Assembly (NCBI GenBank): GCA_012517355.1 | Contig: JAAYVD010000150.1 | Coordinates: forward strand, 1 to 64,000 | Origin: Candidatus Rifleibacteriota bacterium | GTDB lineage: Bacteria > Muiribacteriota > Ozemobacteria > Ozemobacterales > Ozemobacteraceae | Direction: 5' to 3' | DNA: 64,000 nucleotides | In this document: one piece after another, positions 7,006 to 63,712 of the stretch | Numbering within the stretch: position 1 is the first letter of the stretch | How the letters are laid out: every line of letters begins with the position of its first letter | The notes under the pieces: model-generated | Told to the model about the DNA's origin: nothing | The model's input: the letters and a program-made list of their open reading frames with translations, nothing else | Databases searched by the model: none | Program-made: the position numbers and the translations under genes

Positions 7006-7225
7006 CCCCGCGGGGGTTCGCGGGAAGGGCCCCATGACATGGGGCGAAGCGGGCGACCCGCGCTGCCAACCGGTGCGCCAGGATGCTCCTTCCGGCATCG
7101 TGGCGGACGGGTTGGGAAGCGCCCGGTGCTCAGGTGGAACCCTGCCGGCGGAGAATTCCCGGTGCCGCAGGGGTCGGCGAGGAACCTGAAGGCCCGGTCC
7201 TTCCGATGCCGGAGAAAGATCCGGT

Positions 7226-12070: not shown

Positions 12071-12228
12071 GGATGGACACTCCAGCATTTCGACGGACGC
12101 ACCAATCCACGTTCTTCATCCACCCATCGATGCTGATTGCGCAGATCGTGCTGGCGACCCCTTGGCCATTTCCCCCCTTTCTCCTCTTCCCCTGCCGCCC
12201 TCGAGGGTTCTGTCGAAATGCTGAAGTC
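12071..12228 (-). repeat. 160-bp dispersed repeat, copy 1
   Basis: Read on the minus strand this matches 17788-17950 and 32912-33079 over its whole length. All share TTCGACAGAA near one end, CTCGAGG and CGGCAGGGG next, a middle block ending CAGCACGATC, then ATCGATGGG, and a distal block. Nothing else is visible in 11829-12330 and no ORF is plausible. Confidence 0.75.
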
Positions 12229-12330
12229 TCTCGGTATGTTTGCTGGAGTCTCCCATTTGGTCATGTGTCCCCGAAATTTCCCGAATTTTCCTCAGTGACG
12301 CCGTGGTGAATCCTTCCGAGGTTTCCGGAC

Positions 12331-17739: not shown

Positions 17740-17787
17740 TTTTGCCCGTTTGCCCGAAGAACCGAAACCGGCGGGAAAGAAAAGAGA

Positions 17788-17950
17788 GACTTCCGGATTT
17801 CGACAGAACCCTCGAGGACGGCAGGGGAAAGGGAAAGCGGGGGGAAGTGGCGAAGGGAGTCGCCAGCACGATCGGCATGGTCGGAATCGATGGGTTGATG
17901 CAGAAAGAGGAACGGATGCGTCAGTCGGGATGCTGGAATGTCAGAAAAGA
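17788..17950 (+). repeat. 160-bp dispersed repeat, copy 2
   Basis: Same element as 12071-12228 (opposite strand) and 32912-33079 (same strand). With the 36-bp repeats it fills the 17568-18041 gap, which has no plausible ORF. Confidence 0.75.
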
Positions 17951-19493: not shown

Positions 19494-20543
19494 TCAGCGC
19501 TCCTGAGGGGTGGCCGGGGCGTAGGGGGGAAGGGGGGCGGCCAGGACGATCCGGCCCCGCCAGCGGGTCTTTCGGGCCTGGGCGGGGTTCAGCTGTCGCA
19601 GGGTGTCGGAGGCCAGGCCGAAACGGGTGGCGATCTCTTCGACGGGAAGCGCCTGTCGGCCGGTTTCGAAGAAGCGGTGGCCGCCGAGGCAGGTCCAGGT
19701 GCCGGTGTCGATCTGATACTGCCATTCCTCGACGGTGCGGAGGCTGGCGAAGAACCGCTTCCCGCCCCCGCGCCAGGGCCGGCGGACGAGGGTCGTCCAG
19801 ACGGGGGGCTTTCCTTCCGACCATTCCTCTTCGACATGGACTTTGCTCAGGGAGAGGGCCTGGCCCTGGCGGGCGATGGACATCCGGGTGGTGACGAACT
19901 CCCCGTCGTCGAAGCGGTCAAGGGCTCCGAAGCGGTCGCGGAGGAGTTCGATCCAGTCGGAGCCGCTGGCCAGGAGAAGAAGGTGGCCTTCCTCGATGAA
20001 CCGTCCGGTTCCTTCGGCGCAGGTGGTCCAGCGGACCCAGAGCAGGCGGTCGGGCAGGAGCCAGGTGGCGGTGACCGTTTCGGGGGCGAGGCCCCGCCGT
20101 TCGGTCATGTCGGGGTCCTTCCCGGGCGGGGGGGCGGGGTCCCAGGCGAAGAAGGTGCGGTCGAGGTCGAACTCGATGGCCGTGGCCGGGGGGGCGGCGG
20201 GGTCGGAGGGGTCGGGGGCAGCGGCTGTCGGGGCCGGGCCTGCGAAGGGAGGCGGGGCGTGGAGAGTCAGGACGGTGTCGGCGAACGAAGGGGGGGAATC
20301 GGGGGCGGGCCGGCTGATGAAGGAGAGCCTGGTGGGGCGGTTGCGGGGGCGGGGAACGGGGCGGGTCGGCCGGGTGGCGGTGGGTGTCGTGGCGGCCCCC
20401 TGGCGATGCGCGAAACGGTCGCTTGGCGCCGTCATCCGTGGCGGCATCGGGGAAGCCCTTCCGACATCCTGTCGGGCGGGTGGATGGGGCGGACCAGCCC
20501 AGGCGGCCGCGGCGGCGAGGGCGAAGCCGACGACGACGGCCAT
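19494..20543 (-). CDS. Exported protein with C-terminal LysM-like domain, carrying an in-frame 81-bp element
   Basis: A 349-residue protein starting at ATG 20543 with a clear signal peptide (1-17, MAVVVGFALAAAAAWAG). Residues about 22-50 are encoded by one copy of the palindromic element and read as QDVGRASPMPPRM followed by the DRFAHRQG type of peptide. A Pro/Thr-rich stretch follows. The middle 150 residues are an unrecognised domain rich in Trp and Arg. The end (EEIATRFGLASDTLRQLNPAQ) resembles a LysM peptidoglycan-binding repeat. It is the last gene of the minus-strand group that includes an ABC transporter, separated from the permease by another element copy. Confidence 0.75.
   Translation of the reverse strand: MAVVVGFALAAAAAWAGPPHPPARQDVGRASPMPPRMTAPSDRFAHRQGAATTPTATRPTRPVPRPRNRPTRLSFISRPAPDSPPSFADTVLTLHAPPPFAGPAPTAAAPDPSDPAAPPATAIEFDLDRTFFAWDPAPPPGKDPDMTERRGLAPETVTATWLLPDRLLWVRWTTCAEGTGRFIEEGHLLLLASGSDWIELLRDRFGALDRFDDGEFVTTRMSIARQGQALSLSKVHVEEEWSEGKPPVWTTLVRRPWRGGGKRFFASLRTVEEWQYQIDTGTWTCLGGHRFFETGRQALPVEEIATRFGLASDTLRQLNPAQARKTRWRGRIVLAAPLPPYAPATPQER
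20396..20479 (+). repeat. 81-bp palindromic element inside the LysM protein gene
   Basis: Contains GCGCGAAACGG, GTCATCCGTGGCGGC and the terminal palindrome CCGACATCCTGTCGGGCGG. About 84 bp here. It sits directly after the signal-peptide codons of the gene, which it crosses without a stop. Confidence 0.8.
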
Positions 20544-20553
20544 GCGCGGACGG

Positions 20554-20634
20554 CCCCTTTGCGATGCGCGAAACTGCCGTTTCGCGCCGCCATCCGTGGC
20601 GGCAAAGGGGCCCTTCCGACATCGTGTCGGTCGG
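20554..20634 (+). repeat. 81-bp palindromic element, best-preserved intergenic copy
   Basis: An outer stem pairs CCCCTTTGC with GCAAAGGGG. It encloses hairpin GCGCGAAAC/GTTTCGCGC and hairpin GCCGCCA/TGGCGGC. The unit ends with the palindrome CCGACATCGTGTCGGTCGG. Exactly 81 bp. It lies between the permease stop (20660) and the LysM gene start (20543). Confidence 0.85.
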
Positions 20635-20659
20635 GGGCCGCGGTTCCCTTCCCTTCCCT

Positions 20660-21427
20660 TCATTTGACGAGGCGGAGCAGCATGCGCCGGCGCGCGTACC
20701 AGACGGTGCCGACGAGCCAGGTGGCCAGGATCGGCACCGCGCGCCAGTAGACCGGGGTGCCGAGGGTCAGACTGCGCAGGAGCGAGACGACGGGGGTCAG
20801 GGGGAGGGCCCAGACGGCGGTCTGCAGCCAGTCGGGCAGTTGGGACAGGGGGAAGAAGACGCCGCAGAAGAGGAACATCGGGAAGATGAACAGGAACTGC
20901 GGGTAGGAGATCTCGTCGATCGAGGCGGAGACGGCGGCGGCCAGCAGGCCGAGGGCCCCGAACAGGAAGGCGCAGAGGAAGGCGACGGGCAGGGCGGCCA
21001 GGGCGCCGAGGGGCCGGAAGTCGCCGGTGACGGCCCCGATGAGCAGCACGGCCGTGGCGGCGATGGTGCCCTTGGTGGCGTCCCAGAGCAGTTCTCCCCA
21101 GAGGACCTCGGAGAGGGTGATGGGGGTCATGGCCATGGCCTGGTAGATGCGCTGGTAGTACATGCGCACGAAGCTGCCGTAGGCCGCCTCGAAGAACCCC
21201 TGGAACAGCAGGGTCTGGGCGGCGATGCCGGCGAAGATGAACTGGCGGTAGGTCAGGGCGATCCCGTCCACCTCGATGGCCCCGACCATCGTTCCCAGGC
21301 CGTACCCGAACGAGAGCAGGTAGAGGATGGGCTCGACGAAGGTGGTGGTCAGCCCGAACCGGATGTCCTTGCGGTAGATCGCGAAATACCGCAGCCAGAC
21401 GATGCGGATGGCCCAGCCGTCGATCAT
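20660..21427 (-). CDS. ABC-2 type transporter permease
   Basis: A 255-residue membrane protein of the ABC-2 permease family (NodJ-like), with about six hydrophobic segments: near 28-45, 66-85, 110-135, 145-170, 180-200 and 225-245. It would form the channel for the ATPase encoded just upstream, exporting a polysaccharide, lipid or drug; the substrate cannot be read from the sequence. The ATG at 21427 is chosen because GGGAGG sits five bases before it; a GTG two codons upstream would overlap that site. An 81-bp element separates it from the ATPase gene. Confidence 0.88.
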   Translation of the reverse strand: MIDGWAIRIVWLRYFAIYRKDIRFGLTTTFVEPILYLLSFGYGLGTMVGAIEVDGIALTYRQFIFAGIAAQTLLFQGFFEAAYGSFVRMYYQRIYQAMAMTPITLSEVLWGELLWDATKGTIAATAVLLIGAVTGDFRPLGALAALPVAFLCAFLFGALGLLAAAVSASIDEISYPQFLFIFPMFLFCGVFFPLSQLPDWLQTAVWALPLTPVVSLLRSLTLGTPVYWRAVPILATWLVGTVWYARRRMLLRLVK

Positions 21428-21523
21428 GGGCACCTCCCGGGGGTCGGAGCAAAATGGTACCCAATATAAGAATATGAATTGTACAATTCATGATGGGCCT
21501 GCCCCGCGCGGGGCCGGTGTCGG

Positions 21524-21604
21524 CCGCCCGGCGGGGCGCGAAACCCGCGTTCCGCACCGCCATCCGTGGGGGCGAGGGGGGCCGGCCGCCATCGTGCCGG
21601 TTGA
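21524..21604 (+). repeat. 81-bp palindromic element between ABC transporter genes
   Basis: A diverged copy with core GCGCGAAACCCGCGTTCCGC and end CCGCCATCGTGCCGGTTGA. The rest of the 21428-21665 gap shows only a short AT-rich stretch near 21460-21490. Confidence 0.7.
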
Positions 21605-21665
21605 GGGGGGCCAAGGGCGGCTTTGCCCCGGGGCGTCGTGGCCCGGATGACCCGGCCGGTCCCGG

Positions 21666-22550: not shown

Positions 22551-23588
22551 TCAGGGGGTGGCGCCCCGGGACCGCAGCCAGTCGCAGAACCGGCGGGGGC
22601 AACGGTGGGCGATGGCCAGGGTCAGGACCGTGTCACCCTGGGCATCGCGGGCGCTGAGGCTGGCGCCGGCGGCGACCAGCCGGCTGGCGGCCTCCAGGTA
22701 GGGTTGCTGGCCGGCCGCGGCCGCCGGGTCGTCGTCCTCCTGGCCCAGGAGGACGGCCTCGTGGAGCGGGGTGCGGTCCCACATGTTGGCGGGGTCGATG
22801 GCCGCCCCGTGTTGGAGGAGAATCGTCACGAGGTCGGGCTTGCCCGCCCTGGCCGCCAGGTGCAGGGGGGTGTTGCCCTGGCGGTCGGGCAGCACCAACT
22901 GGGCGCCCCGGGCCAGCAGGAATTTCGCGATGCCCGGAAACCCGAGCCGGGCGGCTTCGTGCAGCGGGGTCCGGCGGTGCAGCCCATCGACGGCATCGAC
23001 GTTGGCCCCGTGCTGGACGAGAAACTCCACCATGGATTGGGAACCGCCCTGCACGGCGAGGTGAAGGGGTTCCCGGCCAAGGGGGTCGGGCCAGCGCACG
23101 GCATCGGGGAACCGGCGCAGCAGGGGCAGGAGCCGGCGATGATCGCCCTGGCCGGCCAGGGCATGGATGTCGTCCTGGTCGGCGGTGGCGGGGAAGGCCG
23201 GGGTGACTCTCAGACCGGTCAGGACGGTCAGGCCCAGGAAGAGGACGGCGGCCAGGACGGTCGTCCGGGGCGCCGGTCGGGGTCGGGGGGGAGAGGTGGA
23301 TGGCCTCCTGCGGAGGCGTGAAGCGAGCGTTCCGCCCCGCTCCCCGGGCCGGCAGAGGGGCCTCTCCGATGTCGTGACGGTCGGCCCCCCCTGTGCGGTG
23401 GGCGAAAGGGGCTTTTCGCGCCGTCCCTCGCGGCGGTCAGGGGGGGGGGCCGACAGCGCGTCGGTCGGCCCCTGTGCGATTCGCGAAACTCGCGTTTCGC
23501 GCCGCCGTCCATGGCGGCAAAGGGGCCCTACCGACATCGTGTCGGTCGGGTCGTGCGTGTGGCTGGAAGGGGTACGGCTGACGGTCAT
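22551..23588 (-). CDS. Ankyrin-repeat protein with three in-frame 81-bp elements
   Basis: A 345-residue protein. Residues about 14-95 are encoded by three tandem palindromic units and read as repeats of the type PTDTMSVGPLCRHGRRRE and SRIAQGPTD. A hydrophobic segment follows (TTVLAAVLFLGLTVL, about 108-125), then ankyrin repeats to the end (GREPLHLAVQGG, RTPLHEAARLG, NTPLHLAARAG, RTPLHEAVLLG, DTVLTLAIAH). Ankyrin domains bind proteins; the hydrophobic segment suggests a membrane anchor or signal facing the periplasm. Without the element peptide the protein would begin just before its hydrophobic segment, as expected for an exported protein. Its ATG overlaps the previous stop (ATGA). Confidence 0.82.
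   Translation of the reverse strand: MTVSRTPSSHTHDPTDTMSVGPLCRHGRRRETRVSRIAQGPTDALSAPPPDRREGRREKPLSPTAQGGPTVTTSERPLCRPGERGGTLASRLRRRPSTSPPRPRPAPRTTVLAAVLFLGLTVLTGLRVTPAFPATADQDDIHALAGQGDHRRLLPLLRRFPDAVRWPDPLGREPLHLAVQGGSQSMVEFLVQHGANVDAVDGLHRRTPLHEAARLGFPGIAKFLLARGAQLVLPDRQGNTPLHLAARAGKPDLVTILLQHGAAIDPANMWDRTPLHEAVLLGQEDDDPAAAAGQQPYLEAASRLVAAGASLSARDAQGDTVLTLAIAHRCPRRFCDWLRSRGATP
23304..23549 (+). repeat. Three tandem 81-bp palindromic elements inside the ankyrin gene
   Basis: Units at 23304-23384, 23388-23468 and 23469-23549 are each 81 bp and head to tail, with three extra C residues between the first two. The third is nearly identical to 20554-20634; the first two are more diverged. All are open in the frame of the gene on the minus strand. 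Confidence 0.85.
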
Positions 23589-32911: not shown

Positions 32912-33079
32912 GACTTCAGCCTTTCGACAGAAACCTCGAGGGCGGCAGGGGAACGGGGGAGGGGGGGGGAAGGGGCGAAGGGAGTCGGCAGCACGATCGG
33001 CACGGTCAGAATCGATGGGTGGATGATGAACGGGCCATCGATGCGTCAGTCGAAACGCTGGGGTGTCCGGAAATGAGGA
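32912..33079 (+). repeat. 160-bp dispersed repeat, copy 3
   Basis: Matches 17788-17950 on the same strand and 12071-12228 on the other. The remaining 33080-33307 stretch is purine-rich on the plus strand and holds nothing that I recognise. Confidence 0.75.
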
Positions 33080-33307
33080 AGTGTTGAGGAAGCGGGGAAA
33101 AGGGGGAATGGGCCCTTGGAGATGTGGGGAAGAGGGGAAATGACGAAGAGTGGCCAAGCGGAGGGGGAGAAGCGCCAGGAGCCTGGGGTTGGGGCTCGGG
33201 GGATGGGGCAAGGAGGTGGGAGGAAAGATCGGGTGGGGGGTTGCCAGCGAGGGCCGGGTGGAAGTACAAAGAGGAAGCAGGCATCGACCGTTCCGGGAGC
33301 GATGATT

Positions 33308-33388
33308 CCGCCCGCAGGATGTCGGAAGGGCTTCCCCCTTGCGGCCATGGCTGGCGGCCCGAAACCCCCGTTCCGCGCATGGCCAGGG
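33308..33388 (-). repeat. 81-bp palindromic element upstream of the cyclase gene
   Basis: Reverse orientation: terminal palindrome CCGCCCGCAGGATGTCGG, then CTTGCGGCCATGGCTGGCGG, then the core GAAACCCCCGTTCCGCGC. It lies 50 bp upstream of the cyclase start. Confidence 0.7.
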
Positions 33389-33437
33389 GGCTGCCCGAGG
33401 GGCCGTCCGGACGGGAAAGCCGGCGAGGAGGAACACC

Positions 33438-58885: not shown

Positions 58886-59484
58886 TTCGACGATCGGGTG
58901 TCCTGCCCGTGTCGGGAATGGCCCTTGTCCCCGGGGCGGCGGCTGTCCGGTCCTGGTTCCGGTCCCGGTTCTGGCCCTGGTCGTGTTCCGGTTGCCACGG
59001 GTGATTCCGGTTTTCTGACCGAGGTTTCGTGGTCCTGGTTCCGGCGGTCTTTCCTGTCGTTTCCGTTTTTCCGGTTCTTCCTGTTCTTCCTGTTCTTCCT
59101 GTTTTTCCAGCTCTTCCTGTTCTTTCTGGTCCTTCTGTTCTTCCTGTTCCTCCTGATCTTGCGGTTCTTCCCGTTCCGGCCGCGTCCTTCCGGTCCTGAC
59201 CGTGTCCCGGGCCTGGCCCGTGATCTCCGGGATTCCCGTTCCAATCCCTGATAGGTTCCAGATTGAGGGTTCTCCGGGTTTGACCCTGGTTCCATCCCTG
59301 TCCGGGTTTCCAGTGGCTGGCGATGTTGTCCCGGTTCCCCTCCTGTCCGATCCGGTTCATTCCTCCTGCTTCGCCTGGTGTGACCGTCCGGTCCGTTCGT
59401 TTCGTCTGCCCTGGTTGCCATGGTGTTCTTCAGGTGGTTCCCAACCCCGGTGTCCTGCCGCCGCCTCGTCCTTTCTTCCAACGT
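58886..59484 (+). repeat. Pyrimidine-rich degenerate tandem repeat
   Basis: About 600 bp dominated by variants of CCGGTTCCTG and, at 59060-59190, by a 9-bp TTCTTCCTG repeat. Open frames occur in several phases simply because the repeat lacks stops. On the plus strand it would give Phe/Leu runs and on the minus strand Arg-Lys-Asn or Thr-Gly-Arg runs. I see no ribosome-binding site for any of them and treat it as non-coding, transcribed from the promoter at 58604 up to the terminator at 59485. Confidence 0.6.
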
Positions 59485-60435: not shown

Positions 60436-61320
60436 GTGATCGGTTCCACAGGCGGGACAGGCCCGGCCGCCCTGATCGTCACGGCCGACGACCTGGGCCT
60501 GTGTGCCGAGGTCGATGCGGGAATCCTCGACCTGGTGAGGGCCGGAATGGTCACCGCGGTGGCGGTCCTGGTGAACGAGCCGCACCGGCCCGACCTTTCC
60601 CCCTTCCTGGCGGCGGGAACCAGCCTCGGTCTGCACGTCAATCTTTCCCTGGGCCGCCCGGTGGCGCCGGCGGGCGAGGTGCCGTCGTTGGCGGGGCCAG
60701 ACGGGTGCTTCGCGGGGGGGCCGACCGACACGACGTCGGAAGTGCCCCTTGGCCGCCATGGAGGGCGGCGCGAAACGCCCGTTTCGCGCACCGCCAGGGG
60801 ATCGGCGGGGTTGGCGCGGGGTTGGGCGATGGAAGAGGTCCGGCGCGAGCTGGCCGCCCAGGTCGAGGCCTTCCGCCGGCTGGCCGGCCGGGACCCGGCG
60901 CATCTGACCAGCCACAAACACCTGGCCGAAGCCGACCCCCTCCTGTTCGAGGTGTTTCTCGACGCGGCGGCCGGCCTCCGGTGCCCGGTCCGGACCCGGG
61001 GCGATGCCGCCCGGCGGCGGTGCTGCGAGCGGGGGATCGCCACTCCCGACAGGTTTCTTGGTGACGTCTGTCGCGGGGGATACTGGACGGAGGAACGGCT
61101 GGCGCGGGAACTGGGCCGGCCGGCGGCAGGGGTGACCGAACTGATGTGCCACCCGGGGCGGGCGATGGCGGCCCGGCCTGGCATCTGGTATGCGGAGGAG
61201 CGTGAGGTCGAGCGGCAAGGCCTGTTGGCGGCGGCCGCAACGGTCACGGCGGGTCGGTGGCGGGGGTGGTCCCTGGTGGGTTTCGAGAGCCTGCACCCGG
61301 CCGGGCGGGAGGGGGAATGA
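60436..61320 (+). CDS. YdjC/ChbG-family deacetylase carrying an in-frame 81-bp element
   Basis: A 294-residue protein. The family's metal site is visible: TADDLGLC (Asp-Asp) near residue 18, LGLHVNLSLG near 62, TSHKHL near 157 and ELMCHPG near 236. ChbG/YdjC enzymes remove acetyl groups from N-acetylated sugars such as chito-oligosaccharides. Residues about 95-122 (PTDTTSEVPLGRHGGRRE and SRTARGS) come from one palindromic unit placed between two conserved parts, so the fold should tolerate it as a loop. The GTG start at 60436 is chosen by homology; the open frame extends to 60271 but that part is not family-like. Its stop overlaps the next ATG. Confidence 0.82.
   Translation: MIGSTGGTGPAALIVTADDLGLCAEVDAGILDLVRAGMVTAVAVLVNEPHRPDLSPFLAAGTSLGLHVNLSLGRPVAPAGEVPSLAGPDGCFAGGPTDTTSEVPLGRHGGRRETPVSRTARGSAGLARGWAMEEVRRELAAQVEAFRRLAGRDPAHLTSHKHLAEADPLLFEVFLDAAAGLRCPVRTRGDAARRRCCERGIATPDRFLGDVCRGGYWTEERLARELGRPAAGVTELMCHPGRAMAARPGIWYAEEREVERQGLLAAAATVTAGRWRGWSLVGFESLHPAGREGE
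60720..60800 (-). repeat. 81-bp palindromic element inside the YdjC gene
   Basis: Reverse orientation: CCGACCGACACGACGTCGG, then CCCCTTGGCCGCCATGGAGG, then the core GCGCGAAACGCCCGTTTCGC, ending CCAGGGG. Open in the gene frame. Confidence 0.85.
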
Positions 61321-62435
61321 ACCTGGTCGTCCTCGATTTCAGCGGGTATGGGAACCCCTTCGACCCGCTCAGCGACGCGCTGATCGTCGAGGCCTGCCGC
61401 CGGCGGGGGTGGGCGGCGGAGATCCGGGCGGCCGGGTGCGGGAAGGTGGCGCACGGGTGCCGCGGTCGGCCCAGCCGGCCAGGCCGGCCGGCGACCGGCG
61501 CGGAGCCATTCCCGGAGCCGACCGGCACGATTTCGGCCACACCCCTTTGCCGCCACGAAGGGCGGCGCGAAACGCCCGTTTCGCGCATCGCAAAGGGGCC
61601 GACCGGCACGCGGTCGGAAGGGCTGCCCCGTGGCCATCACGGAGGGCGGCGCGAAACGCCCGTGACGCGCACCGTCAAGGGGCTGTCCGGCCGGGACGGG
61701 GTTTCTGTCTGGTTGAGGTATGACCTGCGGACGCCGGAAGATCTCGCCTGGGTGGTGCAGGTGGCGCGTGACCTGAAGCAGTCGGGAGTCCGGGTGTTCC
61801 CTCGGTCGGAGGCGATCGAAGGGTCGGAGGACAAGTGGCTGACCGCCCGGGCCCTGGCAAAGGCCGGGATCCCCATTCCCCCCACCGCTCTGGGAACCGG
61901 GGTGGCGGCCGGCTCCCTGGCGAAGCGGGAAACGGAGGGGCCGCGCCGCCGGCCCTGGCAGCCTGGGGGCCTTACCGACGTGGGTTCGGTCCCGTTCCCG
62001 CTCATCGTGAAGCCGCGGGTCGGCTGGGGGGCTCGCCAGACGCAGGTCTTCCGGTCGGCGGCCGAGCCCGGCCTGGCGGAGGCGGTGACTGGCGAGGCCG
62101 TGGTCCAGCCCTTCCTGCCCCATGACCGGACGCTGATTGCGGCGGTGGCGGCGGGTCGCCCTCTCGCCTGCATCGAGGACATCGGCGGGGGGCTGCGGGC
62201 GGAGGGACGTGTGGGGACGATCGCCTTTCCGCCCGGCGCGGCCGACCTCGCGGCGAGGGCTTTGGCGGCGGTGGGGCTGGTCACGGGAACGGTCGACCTG
62301 ATCGAGACCGTCGACGGTCTGCGGGTCCTCGAGGTGAATTCCGCGCCCCGGCTGACCTATCCGCACCTGCCGGAGATCGATCTGGCCGGGCCGATGGTCG
62401 AGGCGGTGCTGGCGTGGTGGGGGTCGGAACCATGA
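61317..62435 (+). CDS. ATP-grasp ligase carrying three in-frame 81-bp elements
   Basis: A 372-residue protein of the RimK-like ATP-grasp group. Core segments are SEDKWLTARALAKAGIPIPPT, FPLIVKPRVGWGARQTQVF (ATP-binding Lys), VVQPFLPHDRTLI and VLEVNSAPRLTYPH (metal ligands). Residues about 68-122 come from two tandem reverse-oriented units (PLCRHEGRRETPVSRIAKGP type), placed between the N-terminal domain and the central domain. A third, diverged, forward unit encodes about 200-226 just before the ATP-binding strand. Family members form amide bonds with amino acids. It overlaps its neighbours by four bases on both sides (ATGA), so all three proteins are co-translated. Confidence 0.82.
   Translation: MNLVVLDFSGYGNPFDPLSDALIVEACRRRGWAAEIRAAGCGKVAHGCRGRPSRPGRPATGAEPFPEPTGTISATPLCRHEGRRETPVSRIAKGPTGTRSEGLPRGHHGGRRETPVTRTVKGLSGRDGVSVWLRYDLRTPEDLAWVVQVARDLKQSGVRVFPRSEAIEGSEDKWLTARALAKAGIPIPPTALGTGVAAGSLAKRETEGPRRRPWQPGGLTDVGSVPFPLIVKPRVGWGARQTQVFRSAAEPGLAEAVTGEAVVQPFLPHDRTLIAAVAAGRPLACIEDIGGGLRAEGRVGTIAFPPGAADLAARALAAVGLVTGTVDLIETVDGLRVLEVNSAPRLTYPHLPEIDLAGPMVEAVLAWWGSEP
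61518..61682 (-). repeat. Two tandem palindromic elements inside the ATP-grasp gene
   Basis: Units 61518-61598 (81 bp) and 61599-61682 (84 bp) lie head to tail without spacer. Each starts with a CCGACCGGCACG palindrome arm and contains GCGCGAAACGCCCG. Both lengths are multiples of three. Confidence 0.88.
61913..61993 (+). repeat. Diverged 81-bp element inside the ATP-grasp gene
   Basis: Contains GCGGGAAACGGAGG and ends CCGACGTGGGTTCGGTCCC. The palindromic arms have decayed but length and order fit the family. Confidence 0.55.
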
Positions 62436-63712
62436 AGATCCTGCTGTGCTGTCCGTATCCCCTCGCCGAGGCGCGGGGGAACAGCGTGGCGGCCAGCCGC
62501 CTGGCGGCGGGGTTCCGGCGGGCGGGGCACGCGGTCGCCGTCCTGGCGCCTCCGGAGGTCGATGACCCGGCGGCGGTGCGGAGCCTGGCCGGCCGGTTCC
62601 GACCGGACGTCGTCCTGGTCATGCATGCGTGGCGGTGTGCCCGGGCCTTCGAGGCCCTCGGCGGAGAGGGCTTCCTGGCAGGCAGGGAAACGGACGATCC
62701 CTGCGATCGTCCGCGGCGGGCAGGCGGTGAGGCTGACCGCACGCCGGCCGGCCCCTTTGCGGCGCGCGAAACGGGCGTTTCGCGCGGCCATCCGTCGCGG
62801 CCTGGGTACCCTTCCGAACTCGTGCCGGTCGGCCGCCCCCCGACCAGGCGGGAAACCGACAGGGCGCGCGGCCATCCGGGGGGGCTAGGGGAGCCTGCCG
62901 ACCTCCTGGCCGCCGGGGCGCCGCCCCGGGTGGTCTCCCTGCGGGGGACCGACCTCAACGAGATGTTCGACCGGCCCGACACCGCCGCGGTGGTGCGGGC
63001 GGTGCTGGATGCCAGCGCCGCCATCGCGGTCTTCCATGCCGAGGCGCACCAGCGCCTGGTGCGGGCGGGCCCTGGGTGGGCGGGGAAGGCGCGCCTGATC
63101 GCCAACGGCGTGTCCCTGGGGTGTTCGGAGGTCGATTTCCGGGGCCGGCTGGGGATTCCGCGTGGGGCGTTCGTGTTCGGAGCGGTGGCGGGATTGCGGG
63201 AGGTGAAGCGTCCTCTGCTGGTGTTGCCCTGGCTGGAGCGGTTGCGCGGGTCGGAGCCGCGGGTGGCCTGGATGCACGCGGGCGGGCCGCAGGAGCCGGC
63301 GATGGCGGAAGAACTGCGGGCCTTCGCCCGGGGCCGGCCCTGGGTGTTCCACCTGGACCACGTGCCGCCGGCCGAGATCGATTCCTTCCTGCGCGCCGCC
63401 GACGTGTTCGTGGCGGCCAGCCGGTCGGAAGGGATGCCCCACGCGGTGCGCGAGGCGATGCTGGCCGGCCTTCCCCTGCTGTTGTCGGACATCGACGGGC
63501 ACCGGGCCATGGCCGTTCCCGAGCGGGAGGCCCTGTTCTTCACCGACGAGGCCGGGTTCCTCGGACAGGCCCGCCGGCTGCTGACCGATGCCGGGGAATG
63601 CCGGCGGCTGGGTTCCGCTGCCCGGGCCCGCGTCGAGGCAGACCTGGCCCGGGATGACGAGATCGGTTCCTACCTGGCCCTGTTCTCGGAGGTGCTCGGA
63701 CGCGCTTGTTGA
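62432..63712 (+). CDS. GT4-family glycosyltransferase carrying three in-frame 81-bp elements
   Basis: A 426-residue retaining glycosyltransferase of the GT4/GT-B type. The first Rossmann domain starts MKILLCCPYPLAEARGNSV and includes SLRGTDLNEMF. The nucleotide-sugar half has ANGVSLG, FVFGAVAGLREVKRP and the E-x7-E motif SRSEGMPHAVREAM. Residues about 81-162 are encoded by three tandem palindromic units (for example GPFAARETGVSRGHPSRPG), inserted in the N-terminal half between MHAWRCARAFEAL and PRVVSLRGTD. This makes the protein about 80 residues longer than a plain GT4. It closes the deacetylase-ligase-transferase cassette; its ATG overlaps the ATP-grasp stop. Confidence 0.85.
   Translation: MKILLCCPYPLAEARGNSVAASRLAAGFRRAGHAVAVLAPPEVDDPAAVRSLAGRFRPDVVLVMHAWRCARAFEALGGEGFLAGRETDDPCDRPRRAGGEADRTPAGPFAARETGVSRGHPSRPGYPSELVPVGRPPTRRETDRARGHPGGLGEPADLLAAGAPPRVVSLRGTDLNEMFDRPDTAAVVRAVLDASAAIAVFHAEAHQRLVRAGPGWAGKARLIANGVSLGCSEVDFRGRLGIPRGAFVFGAVAGLREVKRPLLVLPWLERLRGSEPRVAWMHAGGPQEPAMAEELRAFARGRPWVFHLDHVPPAEIDSFLRAADVFVAASRSEGMPHAVREAMLAGLPLLLSDIDGHRAMAVPEREALFFTDEAGFLGQARRLLTDAGECRRLGSAARARVEADLARDDEIGSYLALFSEVLGRAC
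62671..62916 (+). repeat. Three tandem 81-bp palindromic elements inside the glycosyltransferase gene
   Basis: Units 62671-62751, 62752-62832 and 62836-62916, with three bases between the last two. The middle unit keeps the core GCGCGAAACGGGCGTTTCGC and the end CCGAACTCGTGCCGGTCGG; the outer two are decayed. Confidence 0.75.

What the first reader, a model, noticed from the sequence alone, without database searches (positions are those of the whole stretch)
60720..61682. The element core encodes nearly the same peptide in both orientations
Because GCGCGAAACxxxGTTTCGCGC is an inverted repeat whose centre sits on a codon boundary, both strands read Arg-Glu-Thr-x-Val-Ser-Arg. Reverse copies in the ATP-grasp gene give RRETPVSR and a forward copy in the glycosyltransferase gives RETGVSR. 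A unit of 27 codons with open frames in both directions can land in a gene in either orientation and leave the frame intact. This looks selected rather than accidental.
Basis: seen in the sequence. Interest (0 to 1): 0.75.

Follow-up and report, generated by a model that had tools for sequence, protein, structure and literature searches.

The report
Palindromic repeat inserted inside bacterial genes
A bacterium of the Ozemobacter group carries hundreds of copies of an 81-letter hairpin-forming DNA repeat, some of which sit inside working genes without breaking their reading frame, much like elements known from Rickettsia; the evidence does not show that this coding ability was itself selected.

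Summary
The three sites are copies of a hairpin-forming ~81-nt element with roughly 860 copies expected in this 7.1-Mb Ca. Ozemobacter genome (333 in the 2.75 Mb read, 0 in the reversed control). At least 47 copies in 35 genes lie inside coding sequence, in either orientation. Related genomes have several of these genes without the inserts; in MutM and one other gene the difference is exactly 27 codons. Four other repeat families here have 0 of 237 copies inside genes. The likely reason: the unit adds a multiple of three bases and its consensus has no stop in any frame.

"Both strands encode nearly the same peptide" is arithmetic for a palindrome and holds in every frame. Its centre is not on a codon boundary; only 7 of 47 copies encode RETxVSR. 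Intergenic copies are not stop-depleted in the frames genes use. Genic copies show no codon-position constraint. The frame bias can be explained by a GG target. It works like Rickettsia palindromic elements and intragenic REPs: a new member of a known kind. All three length classes (60, 81, 84) being 3n leaves element-level selection open but unproven.

The parts
60717..60803 (-). 81-nt element, reverse copy inside the YdjC-family deacetylase gene (60436-61320 +), frame rev2: PTDTTSEVPLGRHGGRRETPVSRTARG
   Evidence: Profile hit 1e-20; residues absent from O. sibiricus and G003 orthologues
61514..61599 (-). Element, reverse copy 1 of a tandem pair inside the ATP-grasp gene (61317-62435 +), frame rev2
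   Evidence: Profile hit 9e-19; absent from orthologues
61598..61683 (-). Element, reverse copy 2 of the tandem pair (3-nt longer subfamily), frame rev2, GRRETPVTR
   Evidence: Profile hit 4e-13; absent from orthologues
61908..61994 (+). Element, forward copy in the same ATP-grasp gene, frame fwd1: GSLAKRETEGPRRRPWQPGGLTDVGSV
   Evidence: Profile hit 9e-9; about 26 residues absent from orthologues
62666..62746 (+). Probable degenerate forward copy in the glycosyltransferase gene (GEGFLAGRETDDPCDRPRRAGGEADRT)
   Evidence: Seen by eye in the translation; below the profile threshold
62747..62833 (+). Element, forward copy in the glycosyltransferase gene (62414-63712 +), frame fwd1: GPFAARETGVSRGHPSRPGYPSELVPVG
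   Evidence: Profile hit 4e-15; region absent from the G003 orthologue
62831..62917 (+). Element, second forward copy in tandem in the glycosyltransferase gene
   Evidence: Profile hit 3e-6
20391..20480 (+). Element, 84-nt class, reverse to and inside gene 19494-20663 (-)
   Evidence: Profile hit 8e-15, coding signal on both sides
20547..20635 (+). Element, near-consensus copy at the 5' end of the same gene
23297..23550 (+). Array of three element copies in and at the 5' end of gene 22551-23537 (-)
21517..21605 (+). Intergenic element copy
33306..33398 (-). Intergenic element copy
   Evidence: weaker intergenic copies also at 7032, 12939, 19400, 26685, 37937 and 49800

Best explanation
This is a high-copy, non-autonomous, hairpin-forming mobile repeat of the REP/RPE kind. 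The unit (81 nt, with an 84-nt subfamily and a 60-nt cousin) folds as a long closing stem enclosing two hairpins (one is GCGCGAAAC..GTTTCGCGC), followed by a terminal hairpin, and is bounded by GGNNGG on the left and a near-invariant GGTCGG on the right. It inserts next to G-rich GGNNGG-like sites, including the end of an older copy, which builds tandem arrays. It lands in genes and intergenic DNA in both orientations. Most genic insertions are purged; survivors are those that add 3n nucleotides and no stop, probably in loops or variable regions. The encoded 27-residue peptide is neutral filler that decays at the intergenic rate. Shown: copy number, in-frame genic copies in both orientations, orthologues without the insert, net +27 codons in two genes, no codon-level constraint, arrays of unlike neighbours. 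Inferred: transposition as the mode of spread, the exact target, an unidentified enzyme, purging, and tolerance by loops.
For: 333 copies against 0 in the reversed control. Strong folding of the consensus (z=-6.4). 47 deep-genic copies in 35 genes, all with net lengths 74/77/80 in the 77-position profile, i.e. differing by multiples of 3, while 22% of intergenic copies do not; keeping one open frame was part of the definition of deep-genic, so part of this contrast is built in. Orthologues without the insert in O. sibiricus, G002 and G003, with exactly 27 residues difference in MutM and the contig-101 gene. Genic copies drift without codon-position bias. Array neighbours are hardly more alike than matched random copies (0.685 against 0.668). 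Frame usage fits the codon phase of GG. Four other repeat families never lie in genes (0 of 237).
Against: No transposase could be tied to it: the only Y1/RAYT-type gene found has unrelated repeats beside it. No same-species empty site was available, so target and duplication are not proven. Stem covariation among copies is weak: above all shuffles only for one hairpin. The GG fit was the best of nine motifs tried.
Confidence: 0.8

Rival explanations
1. Reader's reading, recast at the level of the element: variants that keep a 3n length and open frames leave more viable insertions in an 86%-coding genome, so frame compatibility was selected among element lineages.
For: All three amplified length classes, 60, 81 and 84, are 3n; +1/+2 variants are scattered singletons, not amplified; consensus stop-free in six frames in all classes; stop trinucleotides about 3-fold rarer than in GC-matched intergenic DNA, and rarer than in other repeat families; other families are absent from genes.
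Against: No depletion specific to the frames used; openness alone has a 7-21% chance in the more realistic shuffles; the length classes share ancestry, so few independent events; only 14% of copies (47 of 333) are deep in genes, so the gain in viable targets is modest.
Confidence: 0.22
2. The encoded peptide is a functional module (exapted linker or motif) that is selected in proteins.
For: Recurrent RETxVSR-like peptide in unrelated proteins.
Against: No codon-position constraint; five different frames are used; only 7 of 47 copies keep RETxVSR.
Confidence: 0.03
3. A structured RNA or DNA element acting where it lies (terminator, mRNA stabiliser, gyrase or recombination site), with genic copies as accidents.
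For: Intergenic enrichment (208 of 333 copies in about 13.5% of the DNA); strong hairpins.
Against: Density is similar between tandem, divergent and convergent gene pairs (0.53, 0.49 and 0.76 per kb); weak stem covariation; no Rfam match in the window; absent from the congener O. sibiricus at the sensitivity used.
Confidence: 0.07
4. Spread by local duplication and gene conversion, not by transposition.
For: Tandem arrays with 81-nt period; a few neighbours 97-99% alike.
Against: Most of 50 neighbour pairs are no more alike than matched random pairs; most clusters are single copies (132 of 177 clusters in the first 1.66 Mb) scattered over many contigs.
Confidence: 0.08

Closest known systems
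Rickettsia palindromic elements (RPE; Ogata et al. 2000 and 2002, as described in PMC10969869 and PMC3767692)
   Same: Dispersed palindromic elements inserted in frame into unrelated, apparently functional genes as well as intergenic DNA; some occur at neighbouring sites in orthologues; losing repeat identity over time (PMC6649704).
   Different: A different phylum (Ozemobacter group); 60/81/84 nt against about 100-150 nt; far more copies; all consensus lengths 3n and six frames open; both orientations and five frames used here (RPE frame usage was not checked here).
Intragenic GTAG/CGTC-tagged REPs (PMC3733652)
   Same: Hairpin repeats within coding regions encoding about 20-30 extra residues, often as dimers or groups, in repair genes among others (here MutM).
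   Different: No fixed GTAG or CGTC tag; a compound unit of three hairpins plus closing stem; head-to-tail arrays where CGTC REPs are mostly head-to-head; no linked RAYT.
ERIC/RU elements with open reading frames (PMC2759123)
   Same: Small mobile repeats whose translated frames, including shifted and reverse-complement frames, are fused into genes.
   Different: Those have an inverted-repeat MITE form of 103-168 bp and few intragenic cases.
Coding palindromes of Nematomorpha mitochondria (PMC6649704)
   Same: Palindromic DNA inside translated genes.
   Different: There the inverted repeats encode conserved parts of the proteins and are not a dispersed inserted repeat.

Membership tests
Rickettsia palindromic elements (RPE) | Palindromic element inserted in frame into unrelated protein genes | tested here: met
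   47 deep-genic copies in 35 genes; orthologues without insert
Rickettsia palindromic elements (RPE) | Sequence homology to RPE families | not tested
   RPE sequences were not at hand; the founding paper is not in the library; window search of Rfam gave nothing
REP (GTAG/CGTC) | Invariant unpaired GTAG or CGTC tag at one end | tested here: not met
   Left end is variable (GACGGC, GTCGGC, GAGGGC...), right end is GGTCGG
REP mobilised by RAYT | RAYT gene flanked by the repeat | tested here: not met
   One Y1 transposase gene in the genome; no element copy in the 3.3 kb around it
MITE | Terminal inverted repeats | tested here: not met
   Ends GGNNGGCCCC and GTGTCGGTCGG are not inverted repeats of each other (sequence)
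MITE | Target-site duplication | tested here: inconclusive
   GGNNGG-like sequence at both ends could be element, target or duplication; no same-species empty site to decide
IS200/IS605-like single-strand element | Subterminal hairpins, no inverted repeats, insertion beside a short fixed target | tested here: inconclusive
   Hairpins and lack of inverted repeats fit; the target is only inferred; no enzyme was found

The most novel reading that the evidence does not exclude
A bacterial mobile repeat whose length (always a multiple of three: 60, 81, 84) and sequence (no stop in any of six frames) were shaped by selection among element lineages for harmless insertion into genes, in either orientation and nearly any phase, in a gene-dense genome.
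Probability: 0.22. Interest if true: 0.72.

Novelty: new member of a known kind. Interest (0 to 1): 0.42.

Why it matters
In-frame palindromic insertions are best known from Rickettsia. A genome with hundreds of copies, dozens inside conserved genes, plus relatives with orthologues lacking the insert, is a good natural experiment on how proteins take up 27 extra residues and on whether mobile DNA evolves to be harmless. It also warns annotators that some of these proteins carry repeat-derived inserts.

Tried and rejected
Stop depletion in gene-used frames: not found. Peptide properties (net charge, Cys) as the cause of the frame bias: Spearman -0.71, p=0.11 over six frames, and not needed once a GG target is considered; nine target motifs were tried, so the GG fit is post hoc. 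A first run of the target test used a wrong offset and was redone. RAYT as mobilizer: no link. Half-elements bracketing a longer autonomous element: none within 6 kb. Stem covariation: weak (the closing-stem register was off, so its P1 figures are ignored). AlphaFold of the YdjC protein from 3 sequences: mean pLDDT 40, uninformative. Pattern scan of named genomes for the element: 0 hits, with the tool's warning that near records may be left out. The copies in the DegT aminotransferase and ABC1 kinase genes sit in linkers that vary in length in congeners too, so they are weaker cases of insertion.

Full report
Host and feature. The window is contig 50 of a 7.11-Mb, 184-contig, 68% GC genome. 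Its nearest named relative is Candidatus Ozemobacter sibiricus BY5, in the same genus: contig QOQW01000017.1 has the same length as contig 6 of the congener G001 and holds the orthologous gene. Profile searches of 2.75 Mb (39% of the genome) found 333 copies at E<1e-3 and none in the reversed sequence, so about 860 are expected genome-wide. The palindromic core alone occurs at about 410 places with up to two mismatches, against 2-5 for the control. Contigs were partly chosen because they held hits, so the extrapolation is rough.

Anatomy. The consensus is GGNNGGCCCCTTTGCGATGCGCGAAACGGGCGTTTCGCGCCGCCATCCGTGGCGGCAAAGGGGCACTTCCGACATCGTGTCGGTCGG. It folds as a closing stem around two hairpins, followed by a terminal hairpin (-33.5 kcal/mol as DNA, z=-6.4). 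Tandem copies repeat every 81 nt. A subfamily of 61 copies has three more bases (mostly GAA) between the closing stem and the last hairpin. A 60-nt cousin without the GCGCGAAAC hairpin is the common form found in the congener G002 and also occurs in this genome, with divergent relatives in G004. Tandem 60-nt copies are spaced exactly 60 in G002 and in this genome.

Insertion into genes. A codon-usage gene finder that ignores the element itself classed 208 copies as intergenic, 47 as deep inside genes (coding signal in one open frame on both sides; 35 genes), 61 as otherwise within called genes and 17 at gene ends. The syntenic ydjC - ATP-grasp - glycosyltransferase operon of O. sibiricus and of G003 lacks the inserts while the flanking residues align, most clearly for ydjC and the ATP-grasp gene. 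MutM and a gene on contig 101 are exactly 27 residues longer than in O. sibiricus or G002. In MutM the extra residues 67-94 fall between residues 68 and 69 of the solved MutM 1l1t; that this is a surface turn is inference. Four other dispersed repeat families of this genome (105, 76, 31 and 25 copies) have no copy inside a gene.

Is coding capacity selected? The palindrome has 22 nt, its axis lies within a codon, and such a palindrome gives near-identical peptides from both strands in every frame. About half of the gene-level uses (fwd1 8 and rev2 13 of 40) read the RETxVSR frame; the rest use rev0 (11), fwd2 (5) and fwd0 (3). Exact RETxVSR is in 7 of 47 copies. The uneven frame usage (p=0.003 against uniform) is matched by the codon phases of GG dinucleotides at the insertion point (fit p=0.34), though this was the best of nine motifs tried.

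The proposed test. Among 119 intergenic copies of the main length class, the fraction with a stop is 0.10 (fwd1), 0.05 (rev2) and 0.11 (rev0) in the three most used frames, and 0.12 (fwd0), 0.09 (fwd2) and 0.08 (rev1) in the little-used ones. Column-shuffled copies have more stops in all six frames, not only in the used ones, so there is no frame-specific depletion. The consensus is open in six frames, which 21% of dinucleotide shuffles, 7% of structure-preserving shuffles, 2% of plain shuffles and 9-16% of genome 81-mers of similar GC also achieve. Within genes, differences from consensus at codon positions 1, 2 and 3 are 0.99, 1.02 and 0.98 of those expected from the same columns in intergenic copies, so no protein-level constraint is seen.

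What remains for selection. The length classes 60, 81 and 84 are all multiples of three, and the +1/+2 variants at the same place are scattered and not related to each other. Stop trinucleotides are about three times rarer than in GC-matched intergenic DNA and rarer than in the other repeat families. These are too few independent events for a verdict; selection among element lineages stays possible (about 0.2).

How it works. The most likely account is a non-autonomous mobile repeat that inserts at G-rich GGNNGG-like sites. Arrays arise because the element's own end, GGTCGG, is such a site: neighbours in arrays are hardly more alike than matched random copies (0.685 against 0.668). Genic copies are about 12-fold rarer per kb than intergenic ones (from the counts), so most genic insertions are probably removed, and survivors keep the frame. 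No enzyme was identified; the only Y1/RAYT-type transposase gene has other repeats beside it. Hairpins without terminal inverted repeats recall single-strand transposition, but that is inference.

Comparison. In-frame insertion of palindromic elements into genes is known as Rickettsia palindromic elements (PMC10969869, PMC3767692), as intragenic GTAG/CGTC REPs (PMC3733652) and as ERIC/RU fusions (PMC2759123). The present family works like these. It fails the REP tag and RAYT tests and the MITE inverted-repeat test, and its sequence kinship with RPE was not tested. It is therefore best filed as a new family of a known kind, notable for abundance, use in both orientations and lengths that are all multiples of three.

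Noticed in passing
window 12110-12232, 17784-17948, 32912-33073: Copies of a second dispersed repeat family; it appears to be the most abundant of four other intergenic families in this genome (105, 76, 31, 25 copies in 2.75 Mb), none of which lies in genes.
   Followed up: partly
window 59015-59185: A 9-bp tandem repeat (TTCCTGTTC-like, at least 13 overlapping copies listed) that reads as Arg-Lys-Asn repeats on the minus strand.
   Followed up: no
L149 1171-1962 (-): A lone RAYT/Y1-type transposase gene, the only Y1_Tnp match in the genome, with GTTCGGTATCATGTCCCCGGAACTC-like repeats beside it.
   Followed up: partly
L210, L214, L211, L223: In the DegT aminotransferase and ABC1 kinase genes the site carrying the element here is also a linker of very different length in O. 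sibiricus and G002, as if it were a hotspot for insertions of different origin.
   Followed up: no
L033 27-131 (G002 contig 204): Identical 60-nt units in tandem at a contig end; similar arrays near contig ends in this genome (C168, C30) suggest that the repeats break the assembly.
   Followed up: no
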